Assembly (NCBI RefSeq): GCF_032362555.1
Contig: NC_083505.1
Coordinates: 6,005,501 to 6,069,500 of the forward strand
DNA length: 64,000 nucleotides
Source of the DNA: Amyelois transitella
Taxonomy: Eukaryota > Arthropoda > Insecta > Lepidoptera > Pyralidae
Reading direction: 5' to 3'
The stretch's first letter is position 1; each line of letters opens with the position of its first letter. This document shows, in pieces, positions 39,040-64,000 of this stretch. The notes below the pieces were generated by a model. The model was not told where the DNA came from. It worked only from the letters and a program-made list of their open reading frames with translations, and made no database searches. The position numbers and the translations under genes are program-made.

Positions 39040-39408
39040 CGTCACAACGAAGCGAAGCGATAGGTACCTACGTGTGTATCTCTGTACTGTACACGTAACC
39101 TAGGTACTTACCGAACACTGACATTGACACTGACACTGACAGCCGACTTTGATTGAATGTGGATTGAATGCTGTCAACTCTCACCGACGAGAAGGCGCTA
39201 GATCGTATCAAAAAAGCGCTAGATTGCAAATATTTACTATTTCGTGTGTATATATTATGTAGGTACTGCAGTATTGTTATTTCCGAAAGGATGAATCGAT
39301 GTTGTTCTTTTGACATTCTCAGTACCTATAGTATCATATCAAATAACAGGGCTTCATAGTAACTATATACCTACACTATACTATAATACACATCATGACT
39401 AAATTGTG

Positions 39409-39643
39409 ACTAAAGAATAGGACCACTCCATCTCTTTCCTATGGATGTCGTAAAAGGCGACTAAGGGATAGGCTTACAAACTTGGGATTCTATTTTAAGG
39501 CGATGGGCTAGCAACCTGTCGCTATTTTTGAATCTCAATTCTATCATTAAGCCAAATAGCTGAGCGTGGCCTATCAGTATTTTCAAGACAATTGGCTCTG
39601 TCTACCCCACAAGGGATATAGACGTGACCATATGTATGTATGT
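39409..39643 (+). mobile_element. SINE family 1 copy amplified with the array
   Basis: A 5'-truncated copy with an 11-bp duplication ACTAAATTGTG (39398-39408 and 39644-39654). The same insertion with the same borders is in every unit: 43090-43324, 46772-47006, 53668-53902, 57349-57583 and 63120-63354. It was therefore in the founder unit before amplification. Confidence 0.9.
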
Positions 39644-40885
39644 ACTAAATTGTGTCGTGCCTGTTCACAATGCAATATCGCACGGCAAAACACAACGGTC
39701 GGTGCGGTGTAGGTAGGTGGTACCTATGTTTGTTTGCGACGCGAACTCCTATGAACGTTGAACGGAGATCTAAACGTCTAATCACTACTATATTGATATT
39801 ATAAAGGAAAGTCTCCATGTGTTAAATGTTCATACCAAATTTCAAGTAAATCGGTCCAGTGGATTATGCGTGTTGCGTCTCCAGACAGACAGACAGAAAA
39901 CTTTATTCCACTGAGAATATAAAAAGAAAAATATCCAATGTACAATGTACAATTTTTTTGTTCTTCAGATTGAATATAATACATATGTATATTATGTACC
40001 TACTCCTACCTATATCACGTTTTCATCTCTTAAGGTGTAGACGCAGCCAACGGTCATAATAGAGCCATCTCTTCAATGTGTCGTAAGGCGATTTTTATTA
40101 AGTATAATTTTTTTTGTACATTGTTAATGTAGTAGAGTAGATTTTGCTTTTCGAAATCCTATTGGATTGTCATCAAGAATTTTAATTTTTTGCTAAAACG
40201 CTATATAAATATACTTTCGAAAAGACTGGAAGGCCATGCCTTCCTCCATGACTTAATAATTTATAAATACATACATATACCTATACCTAAGCGTATAAGT
40301 TGCGTTCAGTAAGTTGCAGTAAGTGTTGCCTCTTTTTCAACAAGTTCCCGTCATCAGATCTTGTGACAAATATGAAAACACCTTAGTAGGGTGTAGATGT
40401 AGTTTAAAAATAAAACCATACAAGTAGGTTCATAAAAAAAATTTATACAAATAATTACATAAACGATAATTAATACTATTATTATTTTAAACAAAATTCT
40501 GCACGGGGCTTCGCTCCCTTCTAATCTAAGATGTTATAAAACAAAGGGGTAATATGAAGACATAATTACATATATAAAAATAAAAAAATACAAAGCGTTC
40601 ATTAAAATTGATATTTATACATAACACCTAACCTAATGAGACATCGGCCTTAGGGCCCTTTAATACATAGCCATACATAGGCATTGTATAGAATGCTTGT
40701 TTAATACTGATTTCGTACAGTTTTTGTTGGCTCACTATAACAAATCATGGAAAAATATTATACTGTGCTGATAAGAAAACAACATTTTTTTTTTTTGTTT
40801 TAAAATGTAACAAATAGATTATCGTCTGCTAAAAGTAGCAGACTAATCACAGATTAAGAGCTCAAAAAAATCAATAACACTATCA

Positions 40886-42444
40886 TTATTTAACATATTT
40901 TTCCATGGTTTTTTTATGAAATTCTGACCTAAGTGAGTCATTGATAAATGTGTTGCCTTTCTTTTGTGGCTCAGAACGAGCACAGTTTTTGAAAACGACA
41001 TCACCATCCCATCTTCTTTTCACCTTCATATAATTTTTTTGTTCTGCTCCCGAGTAATTCAACAGAGGATTCCCAGAAAAAACGTTTTCCATTCGTATTC
41101 TCTCCTCTTCTCGTTTCTTTTCAGCTTCCTAAAACAAAAATTACATTATTTGTGACATGTCACGTCTTTATCCCTTGCAGTAGCTTGGGTAGAAAATACA
41201 GTCTGCACTGTTGCCTGTACTATTAATAAAAAAACTCCTCAAGGCTATGTTTGGCTGCTTAGCTTGACGATTGAAATTAACAGCAGGTATGTATGATTGT
41301 GTGATGATTAGATATAAAAGACATTCCAAAAAACTGGAAAGGTATAAAACATATGTATGTACTTGGTATTGAGGTATTATTTTAAAAATTGGATTTTTAG
41401 AGTTTTCTAGTTGAAAATAGGCATCATTTGCAGGTATCAAATGAAATAAAATAAAAATTAAACCCTGCCTACTCTCCAGAGAGGTGAGGACGTAACAAAA
41501 TTTCATTTAACAATGATGGTGCTAACAACGAACTGTTCTCGCAAAAAATGTAAATAATCAAACTAAAAATTACATACCTTCTTTGCCTGTTCTGTTGCTC
41601 GCTCTTTTTTTATTTTGTTCAATTCCTCTAATAATGCCGCAGTGTCATCATCGGAATCATCCGATTCTGAAGTATCTCCTTCAAGGGGATCATCCGCATC
41701 CAAAATTGCAGCGGGTACTTGATCCACTTTGGCTCTCTTTGCGGATGGTTCATTTAGCCTTCTTGTGCTCGGGCCTTTAATTTCTTTTTCTCTATCGTCT
41801 AGTTCTTTGCGAAAATCCCTTGATCGTAACTCTTCAGTGGTGCCTTGTCCTCGGTGTCTAAAAAGTAAGAATAACATCATTTGTTAAAATTTAAATCAAC
41901 TTCCTTTAGAACATTCAACACGCAGTTAAGATATTCGGACCAGTTGCTGCATAAATCTTCTTCCTCCTGGCATTAGAACCGGTTGCATCCTCAACACTCT
42001 GGAGAGGAGCCCGGGGTATGCCTTTGACCATGGATCCTGGATTGGGTGAGTCAGGATTTCACACGAAACGACTCCCATCTGACCTCCGCAACCTTTGCAC
42101 GTAAACCTAACCCATGTTGGATCGGTCGATGTTTTCCCTCGCCGTAAGAGCAGTTCGGTTAGTATTCAAACTAGTGTAAATTAAAATCTAAAATAGTCAT
42201 TGGTCTCAATTGGCCTTCCGTCCTGGTTGACCTGCTTTCATCCATACTTACAACATGACCAAACCATCCAAGCAATCCTTTTGAACTTTAAAGTGTCCAG
42301 ATAAATCACTCACCTGTATTTTAATTTCGTATGTCCAGGCAGATCTCTACTGGAGTACTGTCGAGATATAGCGCTCAAATCCTTTTCGCCGCGTCCTTGT
42401 CCACCTCTAGCCGGATCAAAAGTGGGCCTTGCTGCCGTGGTCAT
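40886..42444 (-). CDS. Cwc15 paralogue, array copy 1
   Basis: Exons in reading order: 42444-42314, 41857-41578, 41128-40886; 217 residues with the same exon lengths (131, 280, 243) and phases as the single gene. Sixteen residues differ from it: E45H, Q46R, P82S, S95I, S106T, A121E, I132T, R141K, Q143R, I153V, L154F, A164G, G166E, D170Y, D179G and F211T. Exon 1 has only synonymous differences, at least four. D179G alters the conserved WDDDVVF core and F211T the conserved HKKFMEKY end. Introns are shorter (456 and 449 bp against 672 and 772), largely because the parent intron 2 holds an extra SINE. The intact frame and splice sites suggest a usable gene. Whether it is expressed cannot be seen. 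Confidence 0.9.
41945..42180 (-). mobile_element. SINE family 2 body in paralogue intron 1
   Basis: Contains TGGATCCTGGATTGGGTGAG and CACTCTGGAGAGGAGCCCG, matching the repeat in the single Cwc15 gene, but ends before the tRNA-like head. It is repeated in each unit at the same place. Confidence 0.6.
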
Positions 42445-42720
42445 TTTCAATAATTGAGCTTTATTCAATTGTAGATACCTAATAATATATAATTATTTTT
42501 CCTTCAATATTCGTATGAGATTAGGTGTCTATGTAAGTACCTACTTATTATTCAGAATAGGTCTCAAATTATTAAACAAGCTCTAACAACGATACCGCCA
42601 CGCGGCCACGGACACGTACACCAGCAAATACCACGCACGATAAATTATTTGCAATTCGCTGCACCCTTGTTTGTTTTGTGTTGCAGTTTGCTTGCACTCT
42701 GCACCACGCAACGCACGACA

Positions 42721-45700
42721 CGTCACAACGAAGCGAAGCGATAGGTACCTACGTGTGTATCTCTGTACTGTACACGTAACCTAGGTACTTACCGAACACT
42801 GACATTGACACTGACACTGACAGCCGACTTTGATTGAATGTGGATTGAATGCTGTCAACTCTCACCGACGAGAAGGCGCTAGATCGTATCAAAAAAGCGC
42901 TAGATTGCAAATATTTACTATTTCGTGTGTATATATTATGTAGGTACTGCAGTATTGTTATTTCCGAAAGGATGAATCGATGTTGTTCTTTTGACATTCT
43001 CAGTACCTATAGTATCATATCAAATAACAGGGCTTCATAGTAACTATATACCTACACTATACTATAATACACATCATGACTAAATTGTGACTAAAGAATA
43101 GGACCACTCCATCTCTTTCCTATGGATGTCGTAAAAGGCGACTAAGGGATAGGCTTACAAACTTGGGATTCTATTTTAAGGCGATGGGCTAGCAACCTGT
43201 CGCTATTTTTGAATCTCAATTCTATCATTAAGCCAAATAGCTGAGCGTGGCCTATCAGTATTTTCAAGACAATTGGCTCTGTCTACCCCACAAGGGATAT
43301 AGACGTGACCATATGTATGTATGTACTAAATTGTGTCGTGCCTGTTCACAATGCAATATCGCACGGCAAAACACAACGGTCGGTGCGGTGTAGGTAGGTG
43401 GTACCTATGTTTGTTTGCGACGCGAACTCCTATGAACGTTGAACGGAGATCTAAACGTCTAATCACTACTATATTGATATTATAAAGGAAAGTCTCCATG
43501 TGTTAAATGTTCATACCAAATTTCAAGTAAATCGGTCCAGTGGATTATGCGTGTTGCGTCTCCAGACAGACAGACAGAAAACTTTATTCCACTGAGAATA
43601 TAAAAAGAAAAATATCCAATGTACAATGTACAATTTTTTTGTTCTTCAGATTGAATATAATACATATGTATATTATGTACCTACTCCTACCTATATCACG
43701 TTTTCATCTCTTAAGGTGTAGACGCAGCCAACGGTCATAATAGAGCCATCTCTTCAATGTGTCGTAAGGCGATTTTTATTAAGTATAATTTTTTTTGTAC
43801 ATTGTTAATGTAGTAGAGTAGATTTTGCTTTTCGAAATCCTATTGGATTGTCATCAAGAATTTTAATTTTTTGCTAAAACGCTATATAAATATACTTTCG
43901 AAAAGACTGGAAGGCCATGCCTTCCTCCATGACTTAATAATTTATAAATACATACATATACCTATACCTAAGCGTATAAGTTGCGTTCAGTAAGTTGCAG
44001 TAAGTGTTGCCTCTTTTTCAACAAGTTCCCGTCATCAGATCTTGTGACAAATATGAAAACACCTTAGTAGGGTGTAGATGTAGTTTAAAAATAAAACCAT
44101 ACAAGTAGGTTCATAAAAAAAATTTATACAAATAATTACATAAACGATAATTAATACTATTATTATATTAAACAAAATTCTGCACGGGGCTTCGCTCCCT
44201 TCTAATCTAAGATGTTATAAAACAAAGGGGTAATATGAAGACATAATTACATATATAAAAATAAAAAAATACAAAGCGTTCATTAAAATTGATATTTATA
44301 CATAACACCTAACCTAATGAGACATCGGCCTTAGGGCCCTTTAATACATAGCCATACATAGGCATTGTATAGAATGCTTGTTTAATACTGATTTCGTACA
44401 GTTTTTGTTGGCTCACTATAACAAATCATGGAAAAATATTATACTGTGCTGATAAGAAAACAACATTTTTTTTTTTTTGTTTTAAAATGTAACAAATAGA
44501 TTATCGTCTGCTAAAAGTAGCAGACTAATCACAGATTAAGAGCTCAAAAAAATCAATAACACTATCATTATTTAACATATTTTTCCATGGTTTTTTTATG
44601 AAATTCTGACCTAAGTGAGTCATTGATAAATGTGTTGCCTTTCTTTTGTGGCTCAGAACGAGCACAGTTTTTGAAAACGACATCACCATCCCATCTTCTT
44701 TTCACCTTCATATAATTTTTTTGTTCTGCTCCCGAGTAATTCAACAGAGGATTCCCAGAAAAAACGTTTTCCATTCGTATTCTCTCCTCTTCTCGTTTCT
44801 TTTCAGCTTCCTAAAACAAAAATTACATTATTTGTGACATGTCACGTCTTTATCCCTTGCAGTAGCTTGGGTAGAAAATACAGTCTGCACTGTTGCCTGT
44901 ACTATTAATAAAAAAACTCCTCAAGGCTATGTTTGGCTGCTTAGCTTGACGATTGAAATTAACAGCAGGTATGTATGATTGTGTGATGATTAGATATAAA
45001 AGACATTCCAAAAAACTGGAAAGGTATAAAACATATGTATGTACTTGGTATTGAGGTATTATTTTAAAAATTGGATTTTTAGAGTTTTCTAGTTGAAAAT
45101 AGGCATCATTTGCAGGTATCAAATGAAATAAAATAAAAATTAAACCCTGCCTACTCTCCAGAGAGGTGAGGACGTAACAAAATTTCATTTAACAATGATG
45201 GTACTAACAACGAACTGTTCTCGCAAAAAATGTAAATAATCAAACTAAAAATTACATACCTTCTTTGCCTGTTCTGTTGCTCGCTCTTTTTTTATTTTGT
45301 TCAATTCCTCTAATAATGCCGCAGTGTCATCATCGGAATCATCAGATTCTGAAGTATCTCCTTCAAGGGGATCATCCGCATCCAAAATTGCAGCGGGTAC
45401 TTGATCCACTTTGGCTCTCTTTGCGGATGGTTCATTTAGCCTTCTTGTGCTCGGGCCTTTAATTTCTTTTTCTCTATCGTCTAGTTCTTTGCGAAAATCC
45501 CTTGATCGTAACTCTTCAGTGGTGCCTTGTCCTCGGTGTCTAAAAAGTAAGAATAACATCATTTGTTAAAATTTAAATCAACTTCCTTTAGAACATTCAA
45601 CACGCAGTTAAGATATTCGGACCAGTTGCTGCATAAATCTTCTTCCTCCTGGCATTAGAACCGGTTGCATCCTCAACACTCTGGAGAGGAGCCCGGGGTA

Positions 45701-46402
45701 TGCCTTTGACCATGGATCCTGGATTGGGTGAGTCAGGATTTCACACGAAACGACTCCCATCTGACCTCCGCAACCTTTGCACGTAAACCTAACCCATGTT
45801 GGATCGGTCGATGTTTTCCCTCGCCGTAAGAGCAGTTCGGTTAGTATTCAAACTAGTGTAAATTAAAATCTAAAATAGTCATTGGTCTCAATTGGCCTTC
45901 CGTCCTGGTTGACCTGCTTTCATCCATACTTACAACATGACCAAACCATCCAAGCAATCCTTTTGAACTTTAAAGTGTCCAGATAAATCACTCACCTGTA
46001 TTTTAATTTCGTATGTCCAGGCAGATCTCTACTGGAGTACTGTCGAGATATAGCGCTCAAATCCTTTTCGCCGCGTCCTTGTCCACCTCTAGCCGGATCA
46101 AAAGTGGGCCTTGCTGCCGTGGTCATTTTCAATAATTGAGCTTTATTCAATTGTAGATACCTAATAATATATAATTATTTTTCCTTCAATATTCGTATGA
46201 GATTAGGTGTCTATGTAAGTACCTACTTATTATTCAGAATAGGTCTCAAATTATTAAACAAGCTCTAACAACGATACCGCCACGCGGCCACGGACACGTA
46301 CACCAGCAAATACCACGCACGATAAATTATTTGCAATTCGCTGCACCCTTGTTTGTTTTGTGTTGCAGTTTGCTTGCACTCTGCACCACGCAACGCACGA
46401 CA
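42721..46402. repeat. Array unit 2 (3682 bp)
   Basis: No insertion. It groups with units 3 and 4 by ATTATATTAAAC near 44162 and the ATCAGATTC variant in exon 2. Confidence 0.95.
44568..46126 (-). CDS. Cwc15 paralogue, array copy 2
   Basis: Exons 46126-45996, 45539-45260 and 44810-44568. The predicted protein is the same as copy 1. The exon 2 codon difference (TCG to TCT sense) is silent. Confidence 0.9.
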
Positions 46403-47245
46403 CGTCACAACGAAGCGAAGCGATAGGTACCTACGTGTGTATCTCTGTACTGTACACGTAACCTAGGTACTTACCGAACACTGACATTGACACTGACACT
46501 GACAGCCGACTTTGATTGAATGTGGATTGAATGCTGTCAACTCTCACCGACGAGAAGGCGCTAGATCGTATCAAAAAAGCGCTAGATTGCAAATATTTAC
46601 TATTTCGTGTGTATATATTATGTAGGTACTGCAGTATTGTTATTTCCGAAAGGATGAATCGATGTTGTTCTTTTGACATTCTCAGTACCTATAGTATCAT
46701 ATCAAATAACAGGGCTTCATAGTAACTATATACCTACACTATACTATAATACACATCATGACTAAATTGTGACTAAAGAATAGGACCACTCCATCTCTTT
46801 CCTATGGATGTCGTAAAAGGCGACTAAGGGATAGGCTTACAAACTTGGGATTCTATTTTAAGGCGATGGGCTAGCAACCTGTCGCTATTTTTGAATCTCA
46901 ATTCTATCATTAAGCCAAATAGCTGAGCGTGGCCTATCAGTATTTTCAAGACAATTGGCTCTGTCTACCCCACAAGGGATATAGACGTGACCATATGTAT
47001 GTATGTACTAAATTGTGTCGTGCCTGTTCACAATGCAATATCGCACGGCAAAACACAACGGTCGGTGCGGTGTAGGTAGGTGGTACCTATGTTTGTTTGC
47101 GACGCGAACTCCTATGAACGTTGAACGGAGATCTAAACGTCTAATCACTACTATATTGATATTATAAAGGAAAGTCTCCATGTGTTAAATGTTCATACCA
47201 AATTTCAAGTAAATCGGTCCAGTGGATTATGCGTGTTGCGTCTCC

Positions 47246-47253
47246 AGACAGAC
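47246..47253. repeat. 8-bp target duplication, left copy
   Basis: AGACAGAC, repeated at 50460-50467. The empty site CTCCAGACAGACAGACAG is seen in units 1, 2, 4, 5 and 6. Eight bases is the hAT standard. Confidence 0.95.
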
Positions 47254-50200
47254 CAGTGGCGTAGCGTGCATTGGCGGGACCCCGTATAAAAAATTGTTTG
47301 GGGGCCCTTGTATTGTTTGGGGGTAAAGATTTTTCACAAAAGAAAAAAAATATTGTGAAAAGAAATATTTATTTATCATAACATAATTTAACCTTAATTT
47401 AAAAATTTAATTTTACAAATAAAAATCAAATTTTAAATATTCATTCGCCTTGCCTTTTTTTCGGCAAACTGATTTATTAAATCATTTATGGCTGATGATG
47501 ATTTTAGTTTTTCTAAAGTTTCTACCTCTATGGACAATAGTGAGAGGTCTGACAGCCGTTCTTGTCCCATCGAAGTTCTTAAGTAATTTTTTATCAGTTT
47601 TAATTTTGAAAAACTTCTTTCTGCAGTTGCGGTTGTAACTGGAAGGGTCAAGAATAAAAAGCATGCTGTGATTACCTCGGGAAAACTAGATGCAAGACTA
47701 TTGAATTTTAGTAGCAATAATTCAATGAGTTCTTTAATGGAATAAATTTTTTGAATTTCAGATTTTAAGCATGTTTTTAGAGCCTTTAATTGGTCACAAA
47801 GATTAACTGAGATGTCTTTACTGTATTTAACCGACAGTTTTTCGGAAGCGATTAATATCTCTTCGTTCGTTCTCCGGTTGTAATATTTCGAACATACTAC
47901 TCAGGTCGCAAAGGCTCTGAAATCTTTCTTTAGTTTGAGAAATTAATATATCTAAACAGCAATAGTATACATTGACTTTGAAATAGGATTCCGGGTCGGA
48001 AATTCTCTCATCTTGTGATAACTCATCAAAAAAACGCTTCGTTATCTTTCGCCTACTGTTTTTAAAAACAGTTGTTACCCCCCACTCTTTTGCTAAATCT
48101 TTGGACTCATTTAGCAAACTATTAAATGAAATCTGATTTCTTAATTGGCACAGTCTATTTAAAAGATTACTTAATAAAATACTAGATTTCTGTAAGTCAT
48201 TATTTTCATGCTGTAGAGCTTTAGAAATAGGATTAATAATTTCAAATAGTGAAGAAAAAAATGTAACGAGCACTAAGAAATTATAACTCTCTAAAATATT
48301 AATTATATTTTTACATTCTTCACGTTCATCTTTTTTATTTGAAATTAAATTTAGTTGGTACAAAGTTTTCATGATAAGTAAAAAATTTTTCTTTACCGAT
48401 AATAAAGCATCGTTCCTAGAAGACCATCTGGTTGGACATACCTTTTTAAGGGTAATCAAATATTTTTCAGATGGATCGTCACTTAGCATAGCCCAGCGTT
48501 TTATACTATTGCCAAAAAAAGTATATATTTTTTCTAAATTATCGAAAAAAGTCGATACTTCACGAACGTGTCTCGCAACTAAGTTTAAAGCGTGCGCAGC
48601 ACAATGAACATAATCGGCATTTGGAGCATGCTCTTTTATTAGGGTTTGTAATCCTCCATAAACACCCGACATAACATTTGCTCCATCGTAACCCTGTCCT
48701 CTACATTTAGTCAAATCAATTCCATATTCTTTAGTCAAATTTAAAATGTCAGTTTTCAGACCTGCAGCACTGCAATCGGTTACTGCTATAAATCCTAAAA
48801 AGGACTCACAGATTTTTATTTCTTTAGGCAAATTATCATCATTTTCTGTAACCGAGATATATCGAAAAACTACAGAAAGTTGGTCAATTTTTGACAAGTC
48901 TTGTGTTGTATCCAGAATTATTGTCAGAAATGGAGCTTTTTTAATTTCTGAGATAATATTGTTCCTAACGGTGGTACCAAGCAAACTAATAATTTCGTTT
49001 TGAATCGTAGGGCTTAAATAATTTATTTCGCCTTTCGGTTTTAGAAGAAGTTCTTTTAAAGTTGCATCATAGTTAGATAGCAAACGTAAAATTGCCATAA
49101 AATTTCCAGAATCAGAATCATGCCCTCTCAAAGATAGATTACAAGATGCTAAAGTAATTATAACATTAATAATACGATTCAGTACATCTCTCCAGAATGT
49201 AATTTTACTATTGATTTCACTTTGCAATAGAGTATCGATGGTATTTCCTTGCAACCAATTATTATAAGAGAGTGAGGCATTCATATGCTGCTGTGACTTT
49301 TCATGGTCAAGTATAGTTTGCGTAAAATTGCTTCTAACCGAAACACCGTTAACCCAAGCAGAGGAGTTCGATTTGTTTTGACGATCTGCTAATAACCAAC
49401 AGAAGTGACAGTACGGTTTGTTTAAAACGTTAGAATAACATAACCATGGTCATTGGTCTTACAAGTTTTATGCCTGCCTGATTGAAATATGAATAATAAT
49501 AGGCCGAAAAAGGTCGGTTACTTTCTGGATCTTTTGGAATTGGTCCTTGTGGTTTAAATGGACCCAATTTAAAAATTATTTTTCGTTCGCATTCAGATAA
49601 ATTGTCACCGAAATTTCCTCTATCTGATGAAATTATATTACAATCCTCAAATATATCAGAATCGTTGACTTGGTGTTCTTCAATTTCTGGATGGACATCC
49701 GATGAAGTATGTGCTTGACTTTCTTCTATTTCCGAATGGATATTCGACGCAGAACGTGCTTCAGAAGAATCTAAAAATAAACTTTTTGTGACGGACAGAT
49801 TGACAGACCGAAATTAAAAGATTTCCTTGTTAATCACTACGAACCCCGAATAAATGGGTTGGGTAGTACTTACCTTTCCAATCTAAATCACTCACAGTAT
49901 CTTGTCTCTGAAAAAATGAAGAAATTTTGGGCACTTTTTTTATAACCTCTTCCCTTTTCCGTTTACTTTTTCTTTTCTCACCACCGCTGGGATAATCTCT
50001 TTTCCTTTCACTCATTTCTTTTACAAATCGCTTCTAATATTGTTAAACCAGAAGAACAATATTGTTTGTACTGAATTACAATGTAGGTAATGCACAATTA
50101 CATAAAACGCGTAAATAAACACTGCACTGCACTCCGTGGTTTAACATCAAATGTAGAGTATGGACGTACACGTACATCGTGATATCGATTTTATTATTGA

Positions 50201-50459
50201 GGGATTCCCCGCTGAGTTGCAGATGAAGTAAGTAAAACGGGGAAGTCCCGCAGCCCGCCATAACGATGTAGAGTGTTGCCAACTTTTGAACGCACGCTTA
50301 AGGCGGGATGAAAAGTTATTGCTTTATAGAATTTTGTCATTTGTAAAATAAAATAAATTAGGAAGTTTTTATTTCTTTTTCCTTACACACTTTGGGGCCC
50401 CCGTGGCTCGGGGGCCCCGTATAATTGATACGGCAGATACGGCGGTAGCTACGCCCCTG
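47254..50459 (-). mobile_element. hAT-family DNA transposon, 3206 bp
   Basis: Termini are CAGTGGCGTAGCGTGC on the left and, reverse complemented, CAGGGGCGTAGCTACC on the right. This is an imperfect inverted repeat of the CAGNGGCGTAGC type well known in hAT elements. The element is placed exactly by the 8-bp duplication and by the empty sites in the other units. It encodes a transposase on the minus strand. GC-rich GGGGCCCC words stand near both ends. Confidence 0.95.
47433..50015 (-). pseudogene. hAT transposase, ZMYM1-like, with two frame disruptions
   Basis: Reading order: a short first exon 50015-49874 (basic, MSERKRDYPSGGEKRKSKRK), an intron to 49771, then a continuous region to the stop at 47433. 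A zinc-finger part (YCHFCWLLADRQN) leads into the RNase H-like core with ILDTTQD (first catalytic Asp), GQGYDGANVMSG (second) and a C-terminal dimerisation domain TATAERSFSKLKLIKNYLR. The reading frame changes near 49450, just before the zinc finger, and near 47860, before the C-terminal domain. Each fits a small indel. The product is therefore probably not functional unless these are sequencing errors. Confidence 0.9.
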
Positions 50460-51463: not shown

Positions 51464-53022
51464 TTATTTAACATATTTTTCCATGGTTTTTTTATGAAAT
51501 TCTGACCTAAGTGAGTCATTGATAAATGTGTTGCCTTTCTTTTGTGGCTCAGAACGAGCACAGTTTTTGAAAACGACATCACCATCCCATCTTCTTTTCA
51601 CCTTCATATAATTTTTTTGTTCTGCTCCCGAGTAATTCAACAGAGGATTCCCAGAAAAAACGTTTTCCATTCGTATTCTCTCCTCTTCTCGTTTCTTTTC
51701 AGCTTCCTAAAACAAAAATTACATTATTTGTGACATGTCACGTCTTTATCCCTTGCAGTAGCTTGGGTAGAAAATACAGTCTGCACTGTTGCCTGTACTA
51801 TTAATAAAAAAACTCCTCAAGGCTATGTTTGGCTGCTTAGCTTGACGATTGAAATTAACAGCAGGTATGTATGATTGTGTGATGATTAGATATAAAAGAC
51901 ATTCCAAAAAACTGGAAAGGTATAAAACATATGTATGTACTTGGTATTGAGGTATTATTTTAAAAATTGGATTTTTAGAGTTTTCTAGTTGAAAATAGGC
52001 ATCATTTGCAGGTATCAAATGAAATAAAATAAAAATTAAACCCTGCCTACTCTCCAGAGAGGTGAGGACGTAACAAAATTTCATTTAACAATGATGGTAC
52101 TAACAACGAACTGTTCTCGCAAAAAATGTAAATAATCAAACTAAAAATTACATACCTTCTTTGCCTGTTCTGTTGCTCGCTCTTTTTTTATTTTGTTCAA
52201 TTCCTCTAATAATGCCGCAGTGTCATCATCGGAATCATCAGATTCTGAAGTATCTCCTTCAAGGGGATCATCCGCATCCAAAATTGCAGCGGGTACTTGA
52301 TCCACTTTGGCTCTCTTTGCGGATGGTTCATTTAGCCTTCTTGTGCTCGGGCCTTTAATTTCTTTTTCTCTATCGTCTAGTTCTTTGCGAAAATCCCTTG
52401 ATCGTAACTCTTCAGTGGTGCCTTGTCCTCGGTGTCTAAAAAGTAAGAATAACATCATTTGTTAAAATTTAAATCAACTTCCTTTAGAACATTCAACACG
52501 CAGTTAAGATATTCGGACCAGTTGCTGCATAAATCTTCTTCCTCCTGGCATTAGAACCGGTTGCATCCTCAACACTCTGGAGAGGAGCCCGGGGTATGCC
52601 TTTGACCATGGATCCTGGATTGGGTGAGTCAGGATTTCACACGAAACGACTCCCATCTGACCTCCGCAACCTTTGCACGTAAACCTAACCCATGTTGGAT
52701 CGGTCGATGTTTTCCCTCGCCGTAAGAGCAGTTCGGTTAGTATTCAAACTAGTGTAAATTAAAATCTAAAATAGTCATTGGTCTCAATTGGCCTTCCGTC
52801 CTGGTTGACCTGCTTTCATCCATACTTACAACATGACCAAACCATCCAAGCAATCCTTTTGAACTTTAAAGTGTCCAGATAAATCACTCACCTGTATTTT
52901 AATTTCGTATGTCCAGGCAGATCTCTACTGGAGTACTGTCGAGATATAGCGCTCAAATCCTTTTCGCCGCGTCCTTGTCCACCTCTAGCCGGATCAAAAG
53001 TGGGCCTTGCTGCCGTGGTCAT
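51464..53022 (-). CDS. Cwc15 paralogue, array copy 3
   Basis: Exons 53022-52892, 52435-52156 and 51706-51464. The protein is the same as copies 1 and 2. The nearby hAT element is in the spacer, about 1.0 kb beyond its 3' end, and does not interrupt it. Confidence 0.9.
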
Positions 53023-53298
53023 TTTCAATAATTGAGCTTTATTCAATTGTAGATACCTAATAATATATAATTATTTTTCCTTCAATATTCGTATGAGATT
53101 AGGTGTCTATGTAAGTACCTACTTATTATTCAGAATAGGTCTCAAATTATTAAACAAGCTCTAACAACGATACCGCCACGCGGCCACGGACACGTACACC
53201 AGCAAATACCACGCACGATAAATTATTTGCAATTCGCTGCACCCTTGTTTGTTTTGTGTTGCAGTTTGCTTGCACTCTGCACCACGCAACGCACGACA

Positions 53299-56200
53299 CG
53301 TCACAACGAAGCGAAGCGATAGGTACCTACGTGTGTATCTCTGTACTGTACACGTAACCTAGGTACTTACCGAACACTGACATTGACACTGACACTGACA
53401 GCCGACTTTGATTGAATGTGGATTGAATGCTGTCAACTCTCACCGACGAGAAGGCGCTAGATCGTATCAAAAAAGCGCTAGATTGCAAATATTTACTATT
53501 TCGTGTGTATATATTATGTAGGTACTGCAGTATTGTTATTTCCGAAAGGATGAATCGATGTTGTTCTTTTGACATTCTCAGTACCTATAGTATCATATCA
53601 AATAACAGGGCTTCATAGTAACTATATACCTACACTATACTATAATACACATCATGACTAAATTGTGACTAAAGAATAGGACCACTCCATCTCTTTCCTA
53701 TGGATGTCGTAAAAGGCGACTAAGGGATAGGCTTACAAACTTGGGATTCTATTTTAAGGCGATGGGCTAGCAACCTGTCGCTATTTTTGAATCTCAATTC
53801 TATCATTAAGCCAAATAGCTGAGCGTGGCCTATCAGTATTTTCAAGACAATTGGCTCTGTCTACCCCACAAGGGATATAGACGTGACCATATGTATGTAT
53901 GTACTAAATTGTGTCGTGCCTGTTCACAATGCAATATCGCACGGCAAAACACAACGGTCGGTGCGGTGTAGGTAGGTGGTACCTATGTTTGTTTGCGACG
54001 CGAACTCCTATGAACGTTGAACGGAGATCTAAACGTCTAATCACTACTATATTGATATTATAAAGGAAAGTCTCCATGTGTTAAATGTTCATACCAAATT
54101 TCAAGTAAATCGGTCCAGTGGATTATGCGTGTTGCGTCTCCAGACAGACAGACAGAAAACTTTATTCCACTGAGAATATAAAAAGAAAAATATCCAATGT
54201 ACAATGTACAATTTTTTTGTTCTTCAGATTGAATATAATACATATGTATATTATGTACCTACTCCTACCTATATCACGTTTTCATCTCTTAAGGTGTAGA
54301 CGCAGCCAACGGTCATAATAGAGCCATCTCTTCAATGTGTCGTAAGGCGATTTTTATTAAGTATAATTTTTTTTGTACATTGTTAATGTAGTAGAGTAGA
54401 TTTTGCTTTTCGAAATCCTATTGGATTGTCATCAAGAATTTTAATTTTTTGCTAAAACGCTATATAAATATACTTTCGAAAAGACTGGAAGGCCATGCCT
54501 TCCTCCATGACTTAATAATTTATAAATACATACATATACCTATACCTAAGCGTATAAGTTGCGTTCAGTAAGTTGCAGTAAGTGTTGCCTCTTTTTCAAC
54601 AAGTTCCCGTCATCAGATCTTGTGACAAATATGAAAACACCTTAGTAGGGTGTAGATGTAGTTTAAAAATAAAACCATACAAGTAGGTTCATAAAAAAAA
54701 TTTATACAAATAATTACATAAACGATAATTAATACTATTATTATATTAAACAAAATTCTGCACGGGGCTTCGCTCCCTTCTAATCTAAGATGTTATAAAA
54801 CAAAGGGGTAATATGAAGACATAATTACATATATAAAAATAAAAAAATACAAAGCGTTCATTAAAATTGATATTTATACATAACACCTAACCTAATGAGA
54901 CATCGGCCTTAGGGCCCTTTAATACATAGCCATACATAGGCATTGTATAGAATGCTTGTTTAATACTGATTTCGTACAGTTTTTGTTGGCTCACTATAAC
55001 AAATCATGGAAAAATATTATACTGTGCTGATAAGAAAACAACATTTTTTTTTTTTGTTTTAAAATGTAACAAATAGATTATCGTCTGCTAAAAGTAGCAG
55101 ACTAATCACAGATTAAGAGCTCAAAAAAATCAATAACACTATCATTATTTAACATATTTTTCCATGTTTTTTTTATGAAATTCTGACCTAAGTGAGTCAT
55201 TGATAAATGTGTTGCCTTTCTTTTGTGGCTCAGAACGAGCACAGTTTTTGAAAACGACATCACCATCCCATCTTCTTTTCACCTTCATATAATTTTTTTG
55301 TTCTGCTCCCGAGTAATTCAACAGAGGATTCCCAGAAAAAACGTTTTCCATTCGTATTCTCTCCTCTTCTCGTTTCTTTTCAGCTTCCTAAAACAAAAAT
55401 TACATTATTTGTGACATGTCACGTCTTTATCCCTTGCAGTAGCTTGGGTAGAAAATACAGTCTGCACTGTTGCCTGTACTATTAATAAAAAAACTCCTCA
55501 AGGCTATGTTTGGCTGCTTAGCTTGACGATTGAAATTAACAGCAGGTATGTATGATTGTGTGATGATTAGATATAAAAGACATTCCAAAAAACTGGAAAG
55601 GTATAAAACATATGTATGTACTTGGTATTGAGGTATTATTTTAAAAATTGGATTTTTAGAGTTTTCTAGTTGAAAATAGGCATCATTTGCAGGTATCAAA
55701 TGAAATAAAATAAAAATTAAACCCTGCCTACTCTCCAGAGAGGTGAGGACGTAACAAAATTTCATTTAACAATGATGGTACTAACAACGAACTGTTCTCG
55801 CAAAAAATGTAAATAATCAAACTAAAAATTACATACCTTCTTTGCCTGTTCTGTTGCTCGCTCTTTTTTTATTTTGTTCAATTCCTCTAATAATGCCGCA
55901 GTGTCATCATCGGAATCATCAGATTCTGAAGTATCTCCTTCAAGGGGATCATCCGCATCCAAAATTGCAGCGGGTACTTGATCCACTTTGGCTCTCTTTG
56001 CGGATGGTTCATTTAGCCTTCTTGTGCTCGGGCCTTTAATTTCTTTTTCTCTATCGTCTAGTTCTTTGCGAAAATCCCTTGATCGTAACTCTTCAGTGGT
56101 GCCTTGTCCTCGGTGTCTAAAAAGTAAGAATAACATCATTTGTTAAAATTTAAATCAACTTCCTTTAGAACATTCAACACGCAGTTAAGATATTCGGACC

Positions 56201-56979
56201 AGTTGCTGCATAAATCTTCTTCCTCCTGGCATTAGAACCGGTTGCATCCTCAACACTCTGGAGAGGAGCCCGGGGTATGCCTTTGACCATGGATCCTGGA
56301 TTGGGTGAGTCAGGATTTCACACGAAACGACTCCCATCTGACCTCCGCAACCTTTGCACGTAAACCTAACCCATGTTGGATCGGTCGATGTTTTCCCTCG
56401 CCGTAAGAGCAGTTCGGTTAGTATTCAAACTAGTGTAAATTAAAATCTAAAATAGTCATTGGTCTCAATTGGCCTTCCGTCCTGGTTGACCTGCTTTCAT
56501 CCATACTTACAACATGACCAAACCATCCAAGCAATCCTTTTGAACTTTAAAGTGTCCAGATAAATCACTCACCTGTATTTTAATTTCGTATGTCCAGGCA
56601 GATCTCTACTGGAGTACTGTCGAGATATAGCGCTCAAATCCTTTTCGCCGCGTCCTTGTCCACCTCTAGCCGGATCAAAAGTGGGCCTTGCTGCCGTGGT
56701 CATTTTCAATAATTGAGCTTTATTCAATTGTAGATACCTAATAATATATAATTATTTTTCCTTCAATATTCGTATGAGATTAGGTGTCTATGTAAGTACC
56801 TACTTATTATTCAGAATAGGTCTCAAATTATTAAACAAGCTCTAACAACGATACCGCCACGCGGCCACGGACACGTACACCAGCAAATACCACGCACGAT
56901 AAATTATTTGCAATTCGCTGCACCCTTGTTTGTTTTGTGTTGCAGTTTGCTTGCACTCTGCACCACGCAACGCACGACA
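53299..56979. repeat. Array unit 4 (3681 bp)
   Basis: No insertion. It groups with units 2 and 3 by shared variants and has a private change in exon 3 at about 55167. Confidence 0.95.
55145..56703 (-). CDS. Cwc15 paralogue, array copy 4 (Asn211 variant)
   Basis: Exons 56703-56573, 56116-55837 and 55387-55145. Residue 211 is Asn (AAC) where the other array copies have Thr (ACC) and the single gene has Phe (TTC). Otherwise the same as copy 1. Confidence 0.9.
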
Positions 56980-58346
56980 CGTCACAACGAAGCGAAGCGA
57001 TAGGTACCTACGTGTGTATCTCTGTACTGTACACGTAACCTAGGTACTTACCGAACACTGACATTGACACTGACACTGACAGCCGACTTTGATTGAATGT
57101 GGATTGAATGCTGTCAACTCTCACCGACGAGAAGGCGCTAGATCGTATCAAAAAAGCGCTAGATTGCAAATATTTACTATTTCGTGTGTATATATTATGT
57201 AGGTACTGCAGTATTGTTATTTCCGAAAGGATGAATCGATGTTGTTCTTTTGACATTCTCAGTACCTATAGTATCATATCAAATAACAGGGCTTCATAGT
57301 AACTATATACCTACACTATACTATAATACACATCATGACTAAATTGTGACTAAAGAATAGGACCACTCCATCTCTTTCCTATGGATGTCGTAAAAGGCGA
57401 CTAAGGGATAGGCTTACAAACTTGGGATTCTATTTTAAGGCGATGGGCTAGCAACCTGTCGCTATTTTTGAATCTCAATTCTATCATTAAGCCAAATAGC
57501 TGAGCGTGGCCTATCAGTATTTTCAAGACAATTGGCTCTGTCTACCCCACAAGGGATATAGACGTGACCATATGTATGTATGTACTAAATTGTGTCGTGC
57601 CTGTTCACAATGCAATATCGCACGGCAAAACACAACGGTCGGTGCGGTGTAGGTAGGTGGTACCTATGTTTGTTTGCGACGCGAACTCCTATGAACGTTG
57701 AACGGAGATCTAAACGTCTAATCACTACTATATTGATATTATAAAGGAAAGTCTCCATGTGTTAAATGTTCATACCAAATTTCAAGTAAATCGGTCCAGT
57801 GGATTATGCGTGTTGCGTCTCCAGACAGACAGACAGAAAACTTTATTCCACTGAGAATATAAAAAGAAAAATATCCAATGTACAATGTACAATTTTTTTG
57901 TTCTTCAGATTGAATATAATACATATGTATATTATGTACCTACTCCTACCTATATCACGTTTTCATCTCTTAAGGTGTAGACGCAGCCAACGGTCATAAT
58001 AGAGCCATCTCTTCAATGTGTCGTAAGGCGATTTTTATTAAGTATAATTTTTTTTGTACATTGTTAATGTAGTAGAGTAGATTTTGCTTTTCGAAATCCT
58101 ATTGGATTGTCATCAAGAATTTTAATTTTTTGCTAAAACGCTATATAAATATACTTTCGAAAAGACTGGAAGGCCATGCCTTCCTCCATGACTTAATAAT
58201 TTATAAATACATACATATACCTATACCTAAGCGTATAAGTTGCGTTCAGTAAGTTGCAGTAAGTGTTGCCTCTTTTTCAACAAGTTCCCGTCATCAGATC
58301 TTGTGACAAATATGAAAACACCTTAGTAGGGTGTAGATGTAGTTTA

Positions 58347-58856
58347 AAAATAAATAATAGTTTAAAAAAAACTAAAAAACTACGCTTTTATTGCTAATCA
58401 AACTAAAAAATAGAAAATAAAAATTAATGACAAAGGAATTCAGTAGTAGCAAGTCGAACAATCAGTTATAGTCAGTTGTAGTAGTAATTACCTCGGATTA
58501 AAATTATAACAAATTTAAATTTATAAACAAAACAATTTAAATCAGAGTAAAAAGCGTGGGGTGCCTGATGGAGTAAATATTAAAATCATTCTATAAGCAT
58601 ATATTTATGACAAGAGAGTTATGAAAATGAAGTAAAATGCACCCCACGCTTTTTACTCTGATTTAAATTGTTTTGTTTATAAATTTAAATTTGTTATAAT
58701 TTTAATCCGAGGTAATTACTACTACAACTGACTATAACTGATTGTTCGACTTGCTACTACTGAATTCCTTTGTCATTAATTTTTATTTTCTATTTTTTAG
58801 TTTGATTAGCAATAAAAGCGTAGTTTTTTAGTTTTTTTTAAACTATTATTTATTTT
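58347..58856. repeat. Perfect 214-bp inverted repeat (long hairpin)
   Basis: Arms 58351-58564 and 58639-58852 are exact reverse complements without mismatch or gap, and four further A/T bases pair outside. The loop is 74 bases. The arm begins TAAATAATAG and ends GCGTGGGGTGC. Directly outside the right arm, 58853-58915 holds a diverged copy of the arm's outer 60 bases. A transcript across it would fold into long double-stranded RNA. No protein is encoded. Confidence 0.95.
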
Positions 58857-59064
58857 CTATTTTTTAGTTCGATTTGCAATAAAACGGGTTGTTTTCTAGT
58901 TTTTTTATACAATTATTTTTTGGAAGTTAACACTTCTGGTATAACTATCTTACTAGAAAAGACTTTTGCAACCATGCGCCCATCGCCGGAGGTTTTCACA
59001 ACTAACTTTCTTAAAGTTATATGTGGCCTGATTGGATTAAATCTCATAATATTCTCATCATCAT

Positions 59065-59214
59065 GATTCTTTTTAAGGCGATGGGCTTGCAACCTGTCAC
59101 TATTTGAATCTCAATTCTATCTTAAAGCCAAATAGCTGAACGTGGCCTATCAGTCTTTACAAGACTGTTGGCTCTGTCTACCCCGCAAGGGATATAGACG
59201 TGATTATATGTATG
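59065..59214 (+). mobile_element. SINE family 1, 5'-truncated copy
   Basis: Starts at the AAGGCGATGGGCTTGCAACC block and keeps the 3' half with GTATGTATG tail. It lies inside the unit 5 insertion, between the palindrome and the THAP exon. Confidence 0.8.
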
Positions 59215-59384
59215 TATGATGATTGTTAAACCCAGTTGAAAAGAATTTTATAGTGATAAATCACTGTTAATAATATTTTTGACTATCCAGCAAACGTAAT
59301 AATTTTCGATTGTGGCCTTGCCAGGAATCAAACCACAAGATTAAGAGGCAGATTGATACAGGAACAAAAATATTTCAAACATAC

Positions 59385-59433
59385 CTCCACTGCCTTTACA
59401 ACCAGGAACGCAACAAAGTTTATCTGAAGACAT
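59385..59433 (-). pseudogene. THAP-type first exon, stranded
   Basis: An ATG at 59433 opens MSSDKLCCVPGCKGSG and is followed by a good donor (G|GTATGT) at 59384. CCVPGC is the start of the THAP zinc finger (C-x4-C, with a later C and H expected), found in host DNA-binding proteins and in P-type transposases. No following exon is seen between here and the palindrome, so the gene is cut off. The call rests on 16 residues and is tentative. Confidence 0.5.
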
Positions 59434-60366
59434 CGTGGCACTTTTGTTGTTAAATCTGTCTTTCACAAAAACAAACACAAACTTGGGACTCCTATCTCAA
59501 ATAATAAGGTACTTTTTACAGGAGTCCTATCTCAAAATATCTGCACAACACAGTAAACACAGTCAGAGTCCAATCTCAGATGATAAAATCACACGAATAT
59601 CCGGAAGAACAAAGCTCGACTCAACGGAAGATTCCAAACTCCAAATAACGACAAGTTATCACCACAAAACAAAGTGCAAATAGGTAAATACACAGGCACC
59701 GGTAAAAAACAACAGAAAGAAAGTTTACAGGTGTTCGAATCGAATTCAATCAAAACTTACTGCAAAACTTATTTGACATAAAAAACTGTCACTCATTTTC
59801 CAAACGAGTATTACAGTGTTGCTATTATAAATAGGCAAAAGATACCTAATGTTAATTCAAGAATTGCATTAATATGTTAAATACGTATTAAATATCGCAA
59901 AGTTCTGTAGGTAGTAACTTTATTCTTGTATTTTTGTAAATTTAGTTGTTCAATTTTCATTTATTACTTTTGTTTTATTACTTATATATTTTTTATTGTT
60001 TTAAAATATTCTACTAATTCTACTATGGTTTCTAATGGTAATTCTAAATGGAGCAATGCGATGAAATAAAGAAGCCTCAGGTTAATAGTAACATTATATG
60101 GAAATATATTACATCTCTTTTTGACTCATTATACGTCAGAACTTCTTGGTTTCTTGTATGGAGATTACTGGCACTGGTGCTATCTCTGTCTCTCTTACTC
60201 TCATACGAAGGATCTAAAAATGAATTTATTAATCCTGGCAGTTTTAATAAGGATAATGAGAAACTCTTATCAAAATATTGCATTGTCATCGGTCCTTGAT
60301 ACGTGTGCAAAGTTCCAAGTTGATCAGACGTTTAGAAATCAGTGAAAATTAAGCTCAAAGATTCCG

Positions 60367-60368
<2 letters not shown>
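59434..60368. other. Non-coding part of the unit 5 insertion
   Basis: AT-rich upstream flank of the stranded THAP exon. An 83-codon reading frame at 60048-60299 on the plus strand has one hydrophobic stretch but no recognisable family. Confidence 0.45.
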
Positions 60369-60397
<29 letters not shown>

Positions 60398-60411
60398 CAT
60401 ACATACATACA
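60369..60411. repeat. CATA tetranucleotide microsatellite
   Basis: About ten uninterrupted copies. It is near the right end of the unit 5 insertion and, unlike the other CATA runs here, has no SINE body next to it. Confidence 0.93.
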
Positions 60412-60915
60412 ACCCAAGCTAATATAAAAGCGTAGTAAAAATAAAACCATACAAGTAGGTTCATAAAAAAAATTTATACAAATAATTACATAAACGATAA
60501 TTAATACTATTATTATTTTAAACAAAATTCTGCACGGGGCTTCGCTCCCTTCTAATCTAAGATGTTATAAAACAAAGGGGTAATATGAAGACATAATTAC
60601 ATATATAAAAATAAAAAAATACAAAGCGTTCATTAAAATTGATATTTATACATAACACCTAACCTAATGAGACATCGGCCTTAGGGCCCTTTAATACATA
60701 GCCATACATAGGCATTGTATAGAATGCTTGTTTAATACTGATTTCGTACAGTTTTTGTTGGCTCACTATAACAAATCATGGAAAAATATTATACTGTGCT
60801 GATAAGAAAACAACATTTTTTTTTTTGTTTTAAAATGTAACAAATAGATTATCGTCTGCTAAAAGTAGCAGACTAATCACAGATTAAGAGCTCAAAAAAA
60901 TCAATAACACTATCA

Positions 60916-62474
60916 TTATTTAACATATTTTTCCATGGTTTTTTTATGAAATTCTGACCTAAGTGAGTCATTGATAAATGTGTTGCCTTTCTTTTGTGGC
61001 TCAGAACGAGCACAGTTTTTGAAAACGACATCACCATCCCATCTTCTTTTCACCTTCATATAATTTTTTTGTTCTGCTCCCGAGTAATTCAACAGAGGAT
61101 TCCCAGAAAAAACGTTTTCCATTCGTATTCTCTCCTCTTCTCGTTTCTTTTCAGCTTCCTAAAACAAAAATTACATTATTTGTGACATGTCACGTCTTTA
61201 TCCCTTGCAGTAGCTTGGGTAGAAAATACAGTCTGCACTGTTGCCTGTACTATTAATAAAAAAACTCCTCAAGGCTATGTTTGGCTGCTTAGCTTGACGA
61301 TTGAAATTAACAGCAGGTATGTATGATTGTGTGATGATTAGATATAAAAGACATTCCAAAAAACTGGAAAGGTATAAAACATATGTATGTACTTGGTATT
61401 GAGGTATTATTTTAAAAATTGGATTTTTAGAGTTTTCTAGTTGAAAATAGGCATCATTTGCAGGTATCAAATGAAATAAAATAAAAATTAAACCCTGCCT
61501 ACTCTCCAGAGAGGTGAGGACGTAACAAAATTTCATTTAACAATGATGGTACTAACAACGAACTGTTCTCGCAAAAAATGTAAATAATCAAACTAAAAAT
61601 TACATACCTTCTTTGCCTGTTCTGTTGCTCGCTCTTTTTTTATTTTGTTCAATTCCTCTAATAATGCCGCAGTGTCATCATCGGAATCATCCGATTCTGA
61701 AGTATCTCCTTCAAGGGGATCATCCGCATCCAAAATTGCAGCGGGTACTTGATCCACTTTGGCTCTCTTTGCGGATGGTTCATTTAGCCTTCTTGTGCTC
61801 GGGCCTTTAATTTCTTTTTCTCTATCGTCTAGTTCTTTGCGAAAATCCCTTGATCGTAACTCTTCAGTGGTGCCTTGTCCTCGGTGTCTAAAAAGTAAGA
61901 ATAACATCATTTGTTAAAATTTAAATCAACTTCCTTTAGAACATTCAACACGCAGTTAAGATATTCGGACCAGTTGCTGCATAAATCTTCTTCCTCCTGG
62001 CATTAGAACCGGTTGCATCCTCAACACTCTGGAGAGGAGCCCGGGGTATGCCTTTGACCATGGATCCTGGATTGGGTGAGTCAGGATTTCACACGAAACG
62101 ACTCCCATCTGACCTCCGCAACCTTTGCACGTAAACCTAACCCATGTTGGATCGGTCGATGTTTTCCCTCGCCGTAAGAGCAGTTCGGTTAGTATTCAAA
62201 CTAGTGTAAATTAAAATCTAAAATAGTCATTGGTCTCAATTGGCCTTCCGTCCTGGTTGACCTGCTTTCATCCATACTTACAACATGACCAAACCATCCA
62301 AGCAATCCTTTTGAACTTTAAAGTGTCCAGATAAATCACTCACCTGTATTTTAATTTCGTATGTCCAGGCAGATCTCTACTGGAGTACTGTCGAGATATA
62401 GCGCTCAAATCCTTTTCGCCGCGTCCTTGTCCACCTCTAGCCGGATCAAAAGTGGGCCTTGCTGCCGTGGTCAT
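60916..62474 (-). CDS. Cwc15 paralogue, array copy 5
   Basis: Exons 62474-62344, 61887-61608 and 61158-60916. The protein is the same as copy 1, and the silent exon 2 variant is also that of copy 1. The composite insertion begins about 0.5 kb beyond its 3' end. Confidence 0.9.
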
Positions 62475-62750
62475 TTTCAATAATTGAGCTTTATTCAATT
62501 GTAGATACCTAATAATATATAATTATTTTTCCTTCAATATTCGTATGAGATTAGGTGTCTATGTAAGTACCTACTTATTATTCAGAATAGGTCTCAAATT
62601 ATTAAACAAGCTCTAACAACGATACCGCCACGCGGCCACGGACACGTACACCAGCAAATACCACGCACGATAAATTATTTGCAATTCGCTGCACCCTTGT
62701 TTGTTTTGTGTTGCAGTTTGCTTGCACTCTGCACCACGCAACGCACGACA

Positions 62751-64000
62751 CGTCACAACGAAGCGAAGCGATAGGTACCTACGTGTGTATCTCTGTACTG
62801 TACACGTAACCTAGGTACTTACCGAACACTGACATTGACACTGACACTGACAGCCGACTTTGATTGAATGTGGATTGAATGCTGTCAACTCTCACCGACG
62901 AGAAGGCGCTAGATCGTATCAAAAAAGCGCTAGATTGCAAATATTTACTATTTCGTGTGTATATATTATGTAGGTACTGCAGTATTGTTATTTCCGAAAG
63001 GATGAATCGATGTTGTTCTTTTGACATTCTCAGTACCTATAGTATCATATCAAATAACAGGGCTTCATAGTAACTATATACCTACACTATACTATAATAC
63101 ACATCATGACTAAATTGTGACTAAAGAATAGGACCACTCCATCTCTTTCCTATGGATGTCGTAAAAGGCGACTAAGGGATAGGCTTACAAACTTGGGATT
63201 CTATTTTAAGGCGATGGGCTAGCAACCTGTCGCTATTTTTGAATCTCAATTCTATCATTAAGCCAAATAGCTGAGCGTGGCCTATCAGTATTTTCAAGAC
63301 AATTGGCTCTGTCTACCCCACAAGGGATATAGACGTGACCATATGTATGTATGTACTAAATTGTGTCGTGCCTGTTCACAATGCAATATCGCACGGCAAA
63401 ACACAACGGTCGGTGCGGTGTAGGTAGGTGGTACCTATGTTTGTTTGCGACGCGAACTCCTATGAACGTTGAACGGAGATCTAAACGTCTAATCACTACT
63501 ATATTGATATTATAAAGGAAAGTCTCCATGTGTTAAATGTTCATACCAAATTTCAAGTAAATCGGTCCAGTGGATTATGCGTGTTGCGTCTCCAGACAGA
63601 CAGACAGAAAACTTTATTCCACTGAGAATATAAAAAGAAAAATATCCAATGTACAATGTACAATTTTTTTGTTCTTCAGATTGAATATAATACATATGTA
63701 TATTATGTACCTACTCCTACCTATATCACGTTTTCATCTCTTAAGGTGTAGACGCAGCCAACGGTCATAATAGAGCCATCTCTTCAATGTGTCGTAAGGC
63801 GATTTTTATTAAGTATAATTTTTTTTGTACATTGTTAATGTAGTAGAGTAGATTTTGCTTTTCGAAATCCTATTGGATTGTCATCAAGAATTTTAATTTT
63901 TTGCTAAAACGCTATATAAATATACTTTCGAAAAGACTGGAAGGCCATGCCTTCCTCCATGACTTAATAATTTATAAATACATACATATACCTATACCTA
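62751..64000. repeat. Array unit 6, cut by the window end
   Basis: Contains the spacer with its SINE and the start of the Cwc15 3' flank. Its gene copy, if present, lies beyond the window. Confidence 0.93.

What the first reader, a model, noticed from the sequence alone, without database searches (positions are those of the whole stretch)
39040..64000. Recent tandem amplification of a spliceosome gene paralogue
At least five intact three-exon Cwc15 paralogues stand head to tail in 3.68-kb units, beside a conserved single Cwc15 gene. Units are nearly identical in introns and spacers, so the spread is recent or kept uniform by exchange. Cwc15 is normally a single-copy core splicing factor, and I know of no described amplification in insects. 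Such arrays often arise through dosage selection or genetic conflict, for example drive or germline expression, but that is inference.
Basis: partly seen in the sequence, partly recalled or inferred. Interest (0 to 1): 0.9.

Follow-up and report, generated by a model that had tools for sequence, protein, structure and literature searches.

The report
Fifteen-copy moth array of splicing-gene paralogue
In a moth chromosome, an altered copy of a normally single splicing gene stands in a row of nearly identical intact copies beside the original; this looks like a real, recent gene array, but what the extra protein does is not known.

Summary
The window lies on a 13,852,929-base contig, the same length as the contig of the matching record named Amyelois transitella, the navel orangeworm. 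Past the window edge the array covers about 64.4 kb: 15 intact three-exon Cwc15 paralogues beside one canonical gene. Searches of the 33 contigs found no other copy. Fourteen full units differ by 0.054% on average; paralogue and parent differ by dS 0.14-0.15. So an older duplication was followed by recent or ongoing homogenised expansion, probably by unequal crossing over. The paralogue was a constrained protein gene (pairwise omega about 0.25). It departs, where the parent does not, from 11 of 180 positions invariant in 14 lepidopteran-type proteins, including D179 and F211. F211 aligns with human F223, inside the segment protected by CTNNBL1. The array is probably autosomal, which weakens a sex-chromosome drive reading. 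Most likely function: high-dosage supply of a variant CWC15. Expression, read depth and copy-number variation could not be tested here.

The parts
35547..37644 (-). Canonical (parental) Cwc15 gene, exons 37514-37644, 36562-36841, 35547-35789, 217 aa
   Evidence: gene model; PF04889, E 3.3e-73; 94% identical to the best clusters
39040..64000 (.). Part of the tandem array inside the window; it continues to about C1:6108891 outside it
40886..42444 (-). Paralogue g1, exons 42314-42444, 41578-41857, 40886-41128
44568..46126 (-). Paralogue g2, exons 45996-46126, 45260-45539, 44568-44810
51464..53022 (-). Paralogue g3, exons 52892-53022, 52156-52435, 51464-51706
55145..56703 (-). Paralogue g4 (residue 211 = N, as in database record P0001), exons 56573-56703, 55837-56116, 55145-55387
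60916..62474 (-). Paralogue g5, exons 62344-62474, 61608-61887, 60916-61158
47254..50459 (-). hAT-type element, in one unit only of those read, flanked by the 8-bp repeat AGACAGAC; ORFs with DUF4371 and Dimer_Tnp_hAT in different frames
58355..60435 (.). 2,081-bp insertion with a 218-nt inverted repeat, flanked by the 10-bp repeat TAAAAATAAA; an identical copy sits in unit U10 outside the window
43093..43325 (.). Dispersed short repeat (SINE-like, about 233 bp) in the unit spacer, here that of the second spacer; also found on many other contigs
34455..37803 (.). Parental block homologous in pieces to unit positions 2343-3682 and 1-1136, the source of the first duplication

Best explanation
A block holding Cwc15 and its flank was duplicated in tandem in the lineage of this moth (shown by homology of parental 34455-37803 to the unit). 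The duplicate came to differ at 16 amino acids while still under coding constraint (supported). A 3.68-kb unit carrying it was multiplied to about 15 copies by unequal crossing over and is kept uniform by exchange (inferred from the variant pattern). The likely function is high-dosage supply of a variant CWC15, probably in a restricted tissue or stage such as the germline. That variant keeps the N-terminal 44 residues unchanged but has altered C-terminal residues, one of them in the segment that in human CWC15 contacts CTNNBL1. It would enter the Prp19-related complex in competition with, or in place of, the canonical protein (inferred; no expression or binding data).
For: Fifteen of 15 paralogue CDS are open at 654 nt; 13 of 15 encode the same protein, and g04 and g06 differ only by T211N. 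Parent versus paralogue: dS 0.144-0.153, dN 0.036, omega 0.24-0.25; Fisher p 7e-5 for g2. Exons are 3-6% diverged, intron 1 16.6% with seven gap openings. Had the paralogue drifted freely for half of the intron-1 divergence, about 5 coding indels would be expected (chance of none 0.006), and no stop codon would remain with probability 0.059. Codons 1-44: 0 nonsynonymous and 4 synonymous changes. Of 180 columns invariant in 14 lepidopteran-type proteins the paralogue departs at 12 and the parent at 1, D108E, which both share. Relative rates: 12-15 paralogue-unique against 0-2 parent-unique changes for 14 of 14 outgroups. Array dynamics: neighbouring units share private variants (U07-U09; a 4-bp insertion in U13 and U14), the 2,081-bp insertion occurs identically in U04 and U10, and the right-edge unit is only 98.5% identical. 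PMC4538830, passages: human CWC15 aa 214-229 are protected by CTNNBL1 and binding is likely hydrophobic; F211 equals human F223 by the end-to-end alignments.
Against: No transcript evidence: the P0001 cluster lists only ncbi, uniref and nr as sources. N-terminal conservation has modest weight (P 0.02). The pairwise omega mixes the conserved parent branch with the paralogue branch; without outgroup DNA the synonymous changes cannot be assigned. If the paralogue took only 40% or 30% of the neutral divergence, P for its total substitutions rises to 0.03 or 0.50 (8e-5 and 0.005 if parental synonymous changes are added). Loss of widely conserved residues could also mean a failing protein. Open frames in 15 copies are one recent event, not 15. 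Similarity between units does not decay simply with distance: mean differences 1.31 for neighbours, 2.75 at six units apart, 1.0 at thirteen. Whether CTNNBL1 exists in this genome did not complete.
Confidence: 0.5

Rival explanations
1. Assembly inflation: fewer units exist, and the assembler repeated or joined two haplotypes.
For: Units are nearly identical; 11 of 91 pairs of full units show no substitution. The 2,081-bp insertion with flanks is identical in U04 and U10 over 2,301 bases, as a false duplication would also give. No reads were available.
Against: One contig of 13.85 Mb carries the array with different sequence on each side. The hAT element marks one unit, a 4-bp insertion two, and six SNV columns differ between units. 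A single-copy paralogue could hardly give this pattern, though the exact number 15 could be wrong.
Confidence: 0.12
2. Neutral passenger: the tandem duplicate happened to expand by unequal crossing over; the paralogue is redundant and its number has no selective meaning.
For: Tandem arrays grow and shrink by chance (established knowledge). Expansion or homogenisation is recent, so too few changes exist inside the array to show selection on the copies (6 SNV columns among 14 full units).
Against: Coding constraint before the expansion. The 15 of 15 open frames add little, since they were copied recently.
Confidence: 0.25
3. Genetic conflict: the array is a selfish or suppressor locus acting in meiosis or gametogenesis, comparable in logic to Stellate, an amplified relative of a housekeeping regulatory subunit.
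For: Accelerated protein change, high uniform copy number and two altered widely conserved residues. PMC9741089, passages, describes Stellate as a CK2-beta-like tandem array with variable copy number.
Against: The TIM (Tpi) exons lie on C31, not C1, so the array is probably autosomal. No second Cwc15 array was found in the 33 contigs. No germline data. A W chromosome may be missing from the assembly. The Stellate paper itself reports that deletion of most Stellate copies did not remove drive.
Confidence: 0.12
4. The unit spread because of its spacer (promoter, repeat or unseen non-coding RNA), not the gene.
For: The spacer, about 1.2 kb at unit 1147-2343, is as uniform as the gene and includes a dispersed repeat.
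Against: No Rfam family reached its gathering score in the window. The coding part shows constraint.
Confidence: 0.06

Closest known systems
CWC15/Cwf15 (Pfam PF04889), Prp19-associated spliceosome protein
   Same: Full-length similarity to human and worm proteins of solved spliceosomes and to three more distant ones; N-terminal 44 residues identical to the parent
   Different: About 15 extra copies. At position 179 the five solved-structure relatives have D (three) or E (two), the paralogue G; at position 211 all five have F, the paralogue T or N
Stellate / Su(Ste) arrays of Drosophila melanogaster
   Same: A tandem array of a relative of a conserved housekeeping regulator (passages of PMC9741089)
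   Different: Stellate is X-linked with a Y-linked silencing partner and shares 53% identity with CK2-beta-tes. This array is probably autosomal, keeps the parent's three-exon structure, is 93% identical to its parent, and no partner array was found
Tandem gene arrays under concerted evolution (rDNA, histone and amplified resistance genes; recalled)
   Same: Homogeneous interior, diverged right edge, neighbours sharing private variants
   Different: The amplified gene is a paralogue of a spliceosome factor

Membership tests
CWC15 family (PF04889) | Full-length profile match above the curated cut-off | tested here: met
   parent 247 bits, paralogue 228.8 bits, cut-off 30.4 (the paralogue matches in two stretches, the best being residues 98-217)
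CWC15 family (PF04889) | Residues conserved from insects to human and fission yeast: acidic residue at 179 and F at 211 | tested here: not met
   D179G and F211T or N in all 15 paralogues; the parent keeps both. I take these as conserved residues, not as a published definition of the family
CWC15 family (PF04889) | Association with the Prp19 complex and spliceosome | not testable with these tools
   Needs pull-down or mass spectrometry
Tandem array under concerted evolution | Interior units more alike than edge units; shared private variants among neighbours | tested here: met
   (right edge 98.5% identical; the left edge differs only at its junction). Distance decay is not simple
Tandem array under concerted evolution | Copy number varies between individuals | not testable with these tools
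   Only one assembly is held
Stellate-like sex-chromosome conflict array | Linkage to a sex chromosome | tested here: not met
   TIM (Tpi) exons on C31, array on C1. Indirect, since the Z-linkage of Tpi is recalled
Stellate-like sex-chromosome conflict array | Germline expression and an antagonistic partner array | tested here: inconclusive
   No partner array found in 33 contigs; expression not tested; the W chromosome may be absent

The most novel reading that the evidence does not exclude
A moth lineage has evolved a germline- or stage-specific alternative spliceosome subunit delivered at high dose from a 15-copy array: a CWC15 variant that docks normally but is freed from CTNNBL1, so that the composition of the Prp19 complex, and hence splicing, is set by gene copy number.
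Probability: 0.15. Interest if true: 0.85.

Novelty: new member of a known kind. Interest (0 to 1): 0.52.

Why it matters
Core spliceosome proteins are usually encoded by single genes (general knowledge). A young, intact and homogenised array of a paralogue of one, in a rearable pest moth with the canonical gene next door, would allow a direct test of whether splicing can evolve through dosage of a variant core subunit. The 16 residues that separate the two proteins can be counted in existing RNA-seq and proteomics.

Tried and rejected
Literature: searches for Cwc15 with Lepidoptera, with insect copies, with Amyelois, with paralogue and duplication, and for spliceosome tandem arrays listed no paper whose title or abstract start speaks of amplification of this gene in an insect; only listings were seen. 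PMC7850051 (A. transitella selective sweeps) was searched for six terms; CWC15 and 'splic' do not occur in its main text. PMC8869861 and PMC8022279 were seen as passages. Rfam found nothing in the window at its gathering scores. A pseudogene array was rejected because of open frames and coding constraint. A sex-linked ampliconic reading is disfavoured. Recent gene conversion between parent and paralogue exons was considered because exon 1 is 97% identical, but exon 1 dS (0.14) equals the gene-wide value. Structure prediction was not run: human CWC15 is described as highly disordered (PMC4538830, passage). Presence of CTNNBL1, and other genomic copies of the hAT element and of the spacer without its dispersed repeat, could not be answered.

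Full report
Identity and place. The window is bases 6,005,501-6,069,500 of contig C1 of a 327-Mb, 33-contig assembly; C1 is 13,852,929 bases long. The paralogue's best database match, P0001, is named 'protein CWC15 homolog A-like [Amyelois transitella]' and its longest contig has exactly 13,852,929 bases. The organism is therefore very probably the navel orangeworm moth.

The array. Self-comparison shows a unit of 3,681-3,682 bases repeated from about 39040 to the window end. Outside the window it continues to about C1:6108891, so the array is roughly 64.4 kb, with 14 full units of 3,681-3,685 bases (insertions left out) and partial units at both edges. A protein search of the whole assembly gave 48 matches, which are 15 copies of each paralogue exon and one set for the parent, all on C1. 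A DNA search with exon 3 gave 16 matches, all on C1. The three-exon model gives a 654-nt open CDS in 15 of 15 paralogues. Only two coding sites vary inside the array: a synonymous change in codon 109, and T211N in g04 and g06.

How the array formed. The unit matches the parental locus in pieces covering 34455-37803 at 73-91% identity, so an older tandem duplication came first. The stretch 37804-39016 upstream of the parent has no listed counterpart in the unit, and parental intron 2 holds a dispersed repeat (35971-36198) at a place where homology to the unit stops. Among the 14 full units there are 12 variable columns: six substitutions, two poly-T length columns and four columns of one 4-bp insertion. 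Mean pairwise divergence is 0.054%, and 11 of 91 pairs show no substitution. Private variants are shared by neighbours (U07 and U08, U08 and U09, U13 and U14). A 2,081-bp insertion stands in U04 and, identical over 2,301 bases with flanks, in U10; a hAT element with an 8-bp flanking repeat marks U02 alone. The right-edge unit is 98.5% identical over 2,701 unit positions and keeps a 111-bp piece of parental 3' flank (77% identical) that was not found in an inside unit. This fits unequal crossing over with a homogenised interior. Against a simple picture, mean differences do not rise steadily with distance: 1.31 for neighbours, 2.75 at six units apart, 1.0 at thirteen, so exchange over longer distances must also have occurred. 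With a recalled lepidopteran mutation rate of about 3e-9 per generation, the first duplication would be some 25 million generations old and the spread among units about 90 thousand generations; both are rough.

The protein. Parent and paralogue differ by 18 nonsynonymous and 18-19 synonymous changes: dS 0.144-0.153, dN 0.036, omega 0.24-0.25. Exons 1, 2 and 3 are 3.1, 6.1 and 6.2% diverged; intron 1 is 16.6% diverged with seven gap openings and the upstream stretch 22.3%. Intron 2 (29%) and the downstream stretch (50%) align poorly and I do not use them. The one gap that the alignment placed in exon 3 falls at the stop codon, an alignment effect, since both CDS are 654 nt. Codons 1-44 carry no amino-acid change and four synonymous ones. 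At 180 columns invariant in 14 lepidopteran-type proteins (12 from named species and 2 unnamed clusters) the paralogue departs at 12 and the parent at one, which both share. Position 211 is F in five of five solved-structure relatives, position 179 is D in three and E in two of them. Of the 120 clusters listed out of 3,585 I aligned 20 with P0001 and the parent; all 20 have D179 and F211. The rest I did not align, so the paralogue may exist elsewhere, for example inside clusters whose members are not shown.

What it may do. Passages of PMC4538830 report that the C-terminal fragment of human CWC15 (80-229) binds CTNNBL1 and CDC5L, that residues 214-229 are protected by CTNNBL1, and that the contact is likely hydrophobic. 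The end-to-end alignment puts F211 at human F223. Replacement by T or N should weaken this contact, while the first 44 residues stay as in the parent (inference). The best-supported reading is a variant subunit made in quantity; tissue, timing and benefit are inferred. My estimates: array real and multi-copy about 0.9; evolving by unequal exchange about 0.85; supplying a functional variant subunit about 0.5. The rival odds are not exclusive of one another.

Alternatives. Assembly inflation may affect the exact number but hardly the existence of several distinct units. Neutral expansion cannot be excluded, because too few changes have accumulated since the expansion. A sex-chromosome conflict of the Stellate kind (passages of PMC9741089; abstract and outline of PMC10618873) is disfavoured because the TIM (Tpi) exons lie on C31 and no second array was found, although a W chromosome may be missing.

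Surroundings. Left of the parent lies an exon with a TGF-beta propeptide domain. To the right of the array lie RRM exons and a CIA30-domain exon, so the array sits among ordinary genes.

Noticed in passing
window 32357-32809 (-): Exon with a TGF-beta propeptide domain (E 1e-20); resembles a BMP-type (glass bottom boat) gene, a name from recall.
   Followed up: partly
window 47254-50459: hAT element whose transposase matches (DUF4371 and Dimer_Tnp_hAT) lie in different frames, so it is broken or spliced; present in one unit only.
   Followed up: partly
window 58355-60435: Insertion with a perfect 218-nt inverted repeat near one end whose arms reach into the flanking 10-bp repeat; I could not classify the element.
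   Followed up: partly
window 3425-3713, 4553-4813, 9858-10122, 24865-25128 and others: Dispersed SINE-like repeat of about 230-265 bp, with eight places in the window outside the unit spacer and matches on many other contigs.
   Followed up: no
L013:4188-5317: RS-rich stretch with two RRM exons just right of the array, probably another splicing factor (RBM39-like, recalled).
   Followed up: no
L014:3098-3778: Reverse-transcriptase ORF fragment (RVT_1), a retroelement remnant beyond the array.
   Followed up: no
P0026 and P0097 (protein database): Two different Cwc15 clusters named for Zootermopsis nevadensis share a contig length (1,369,474), perhaps a second gene or gene model in a termite.
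   Followed up: no
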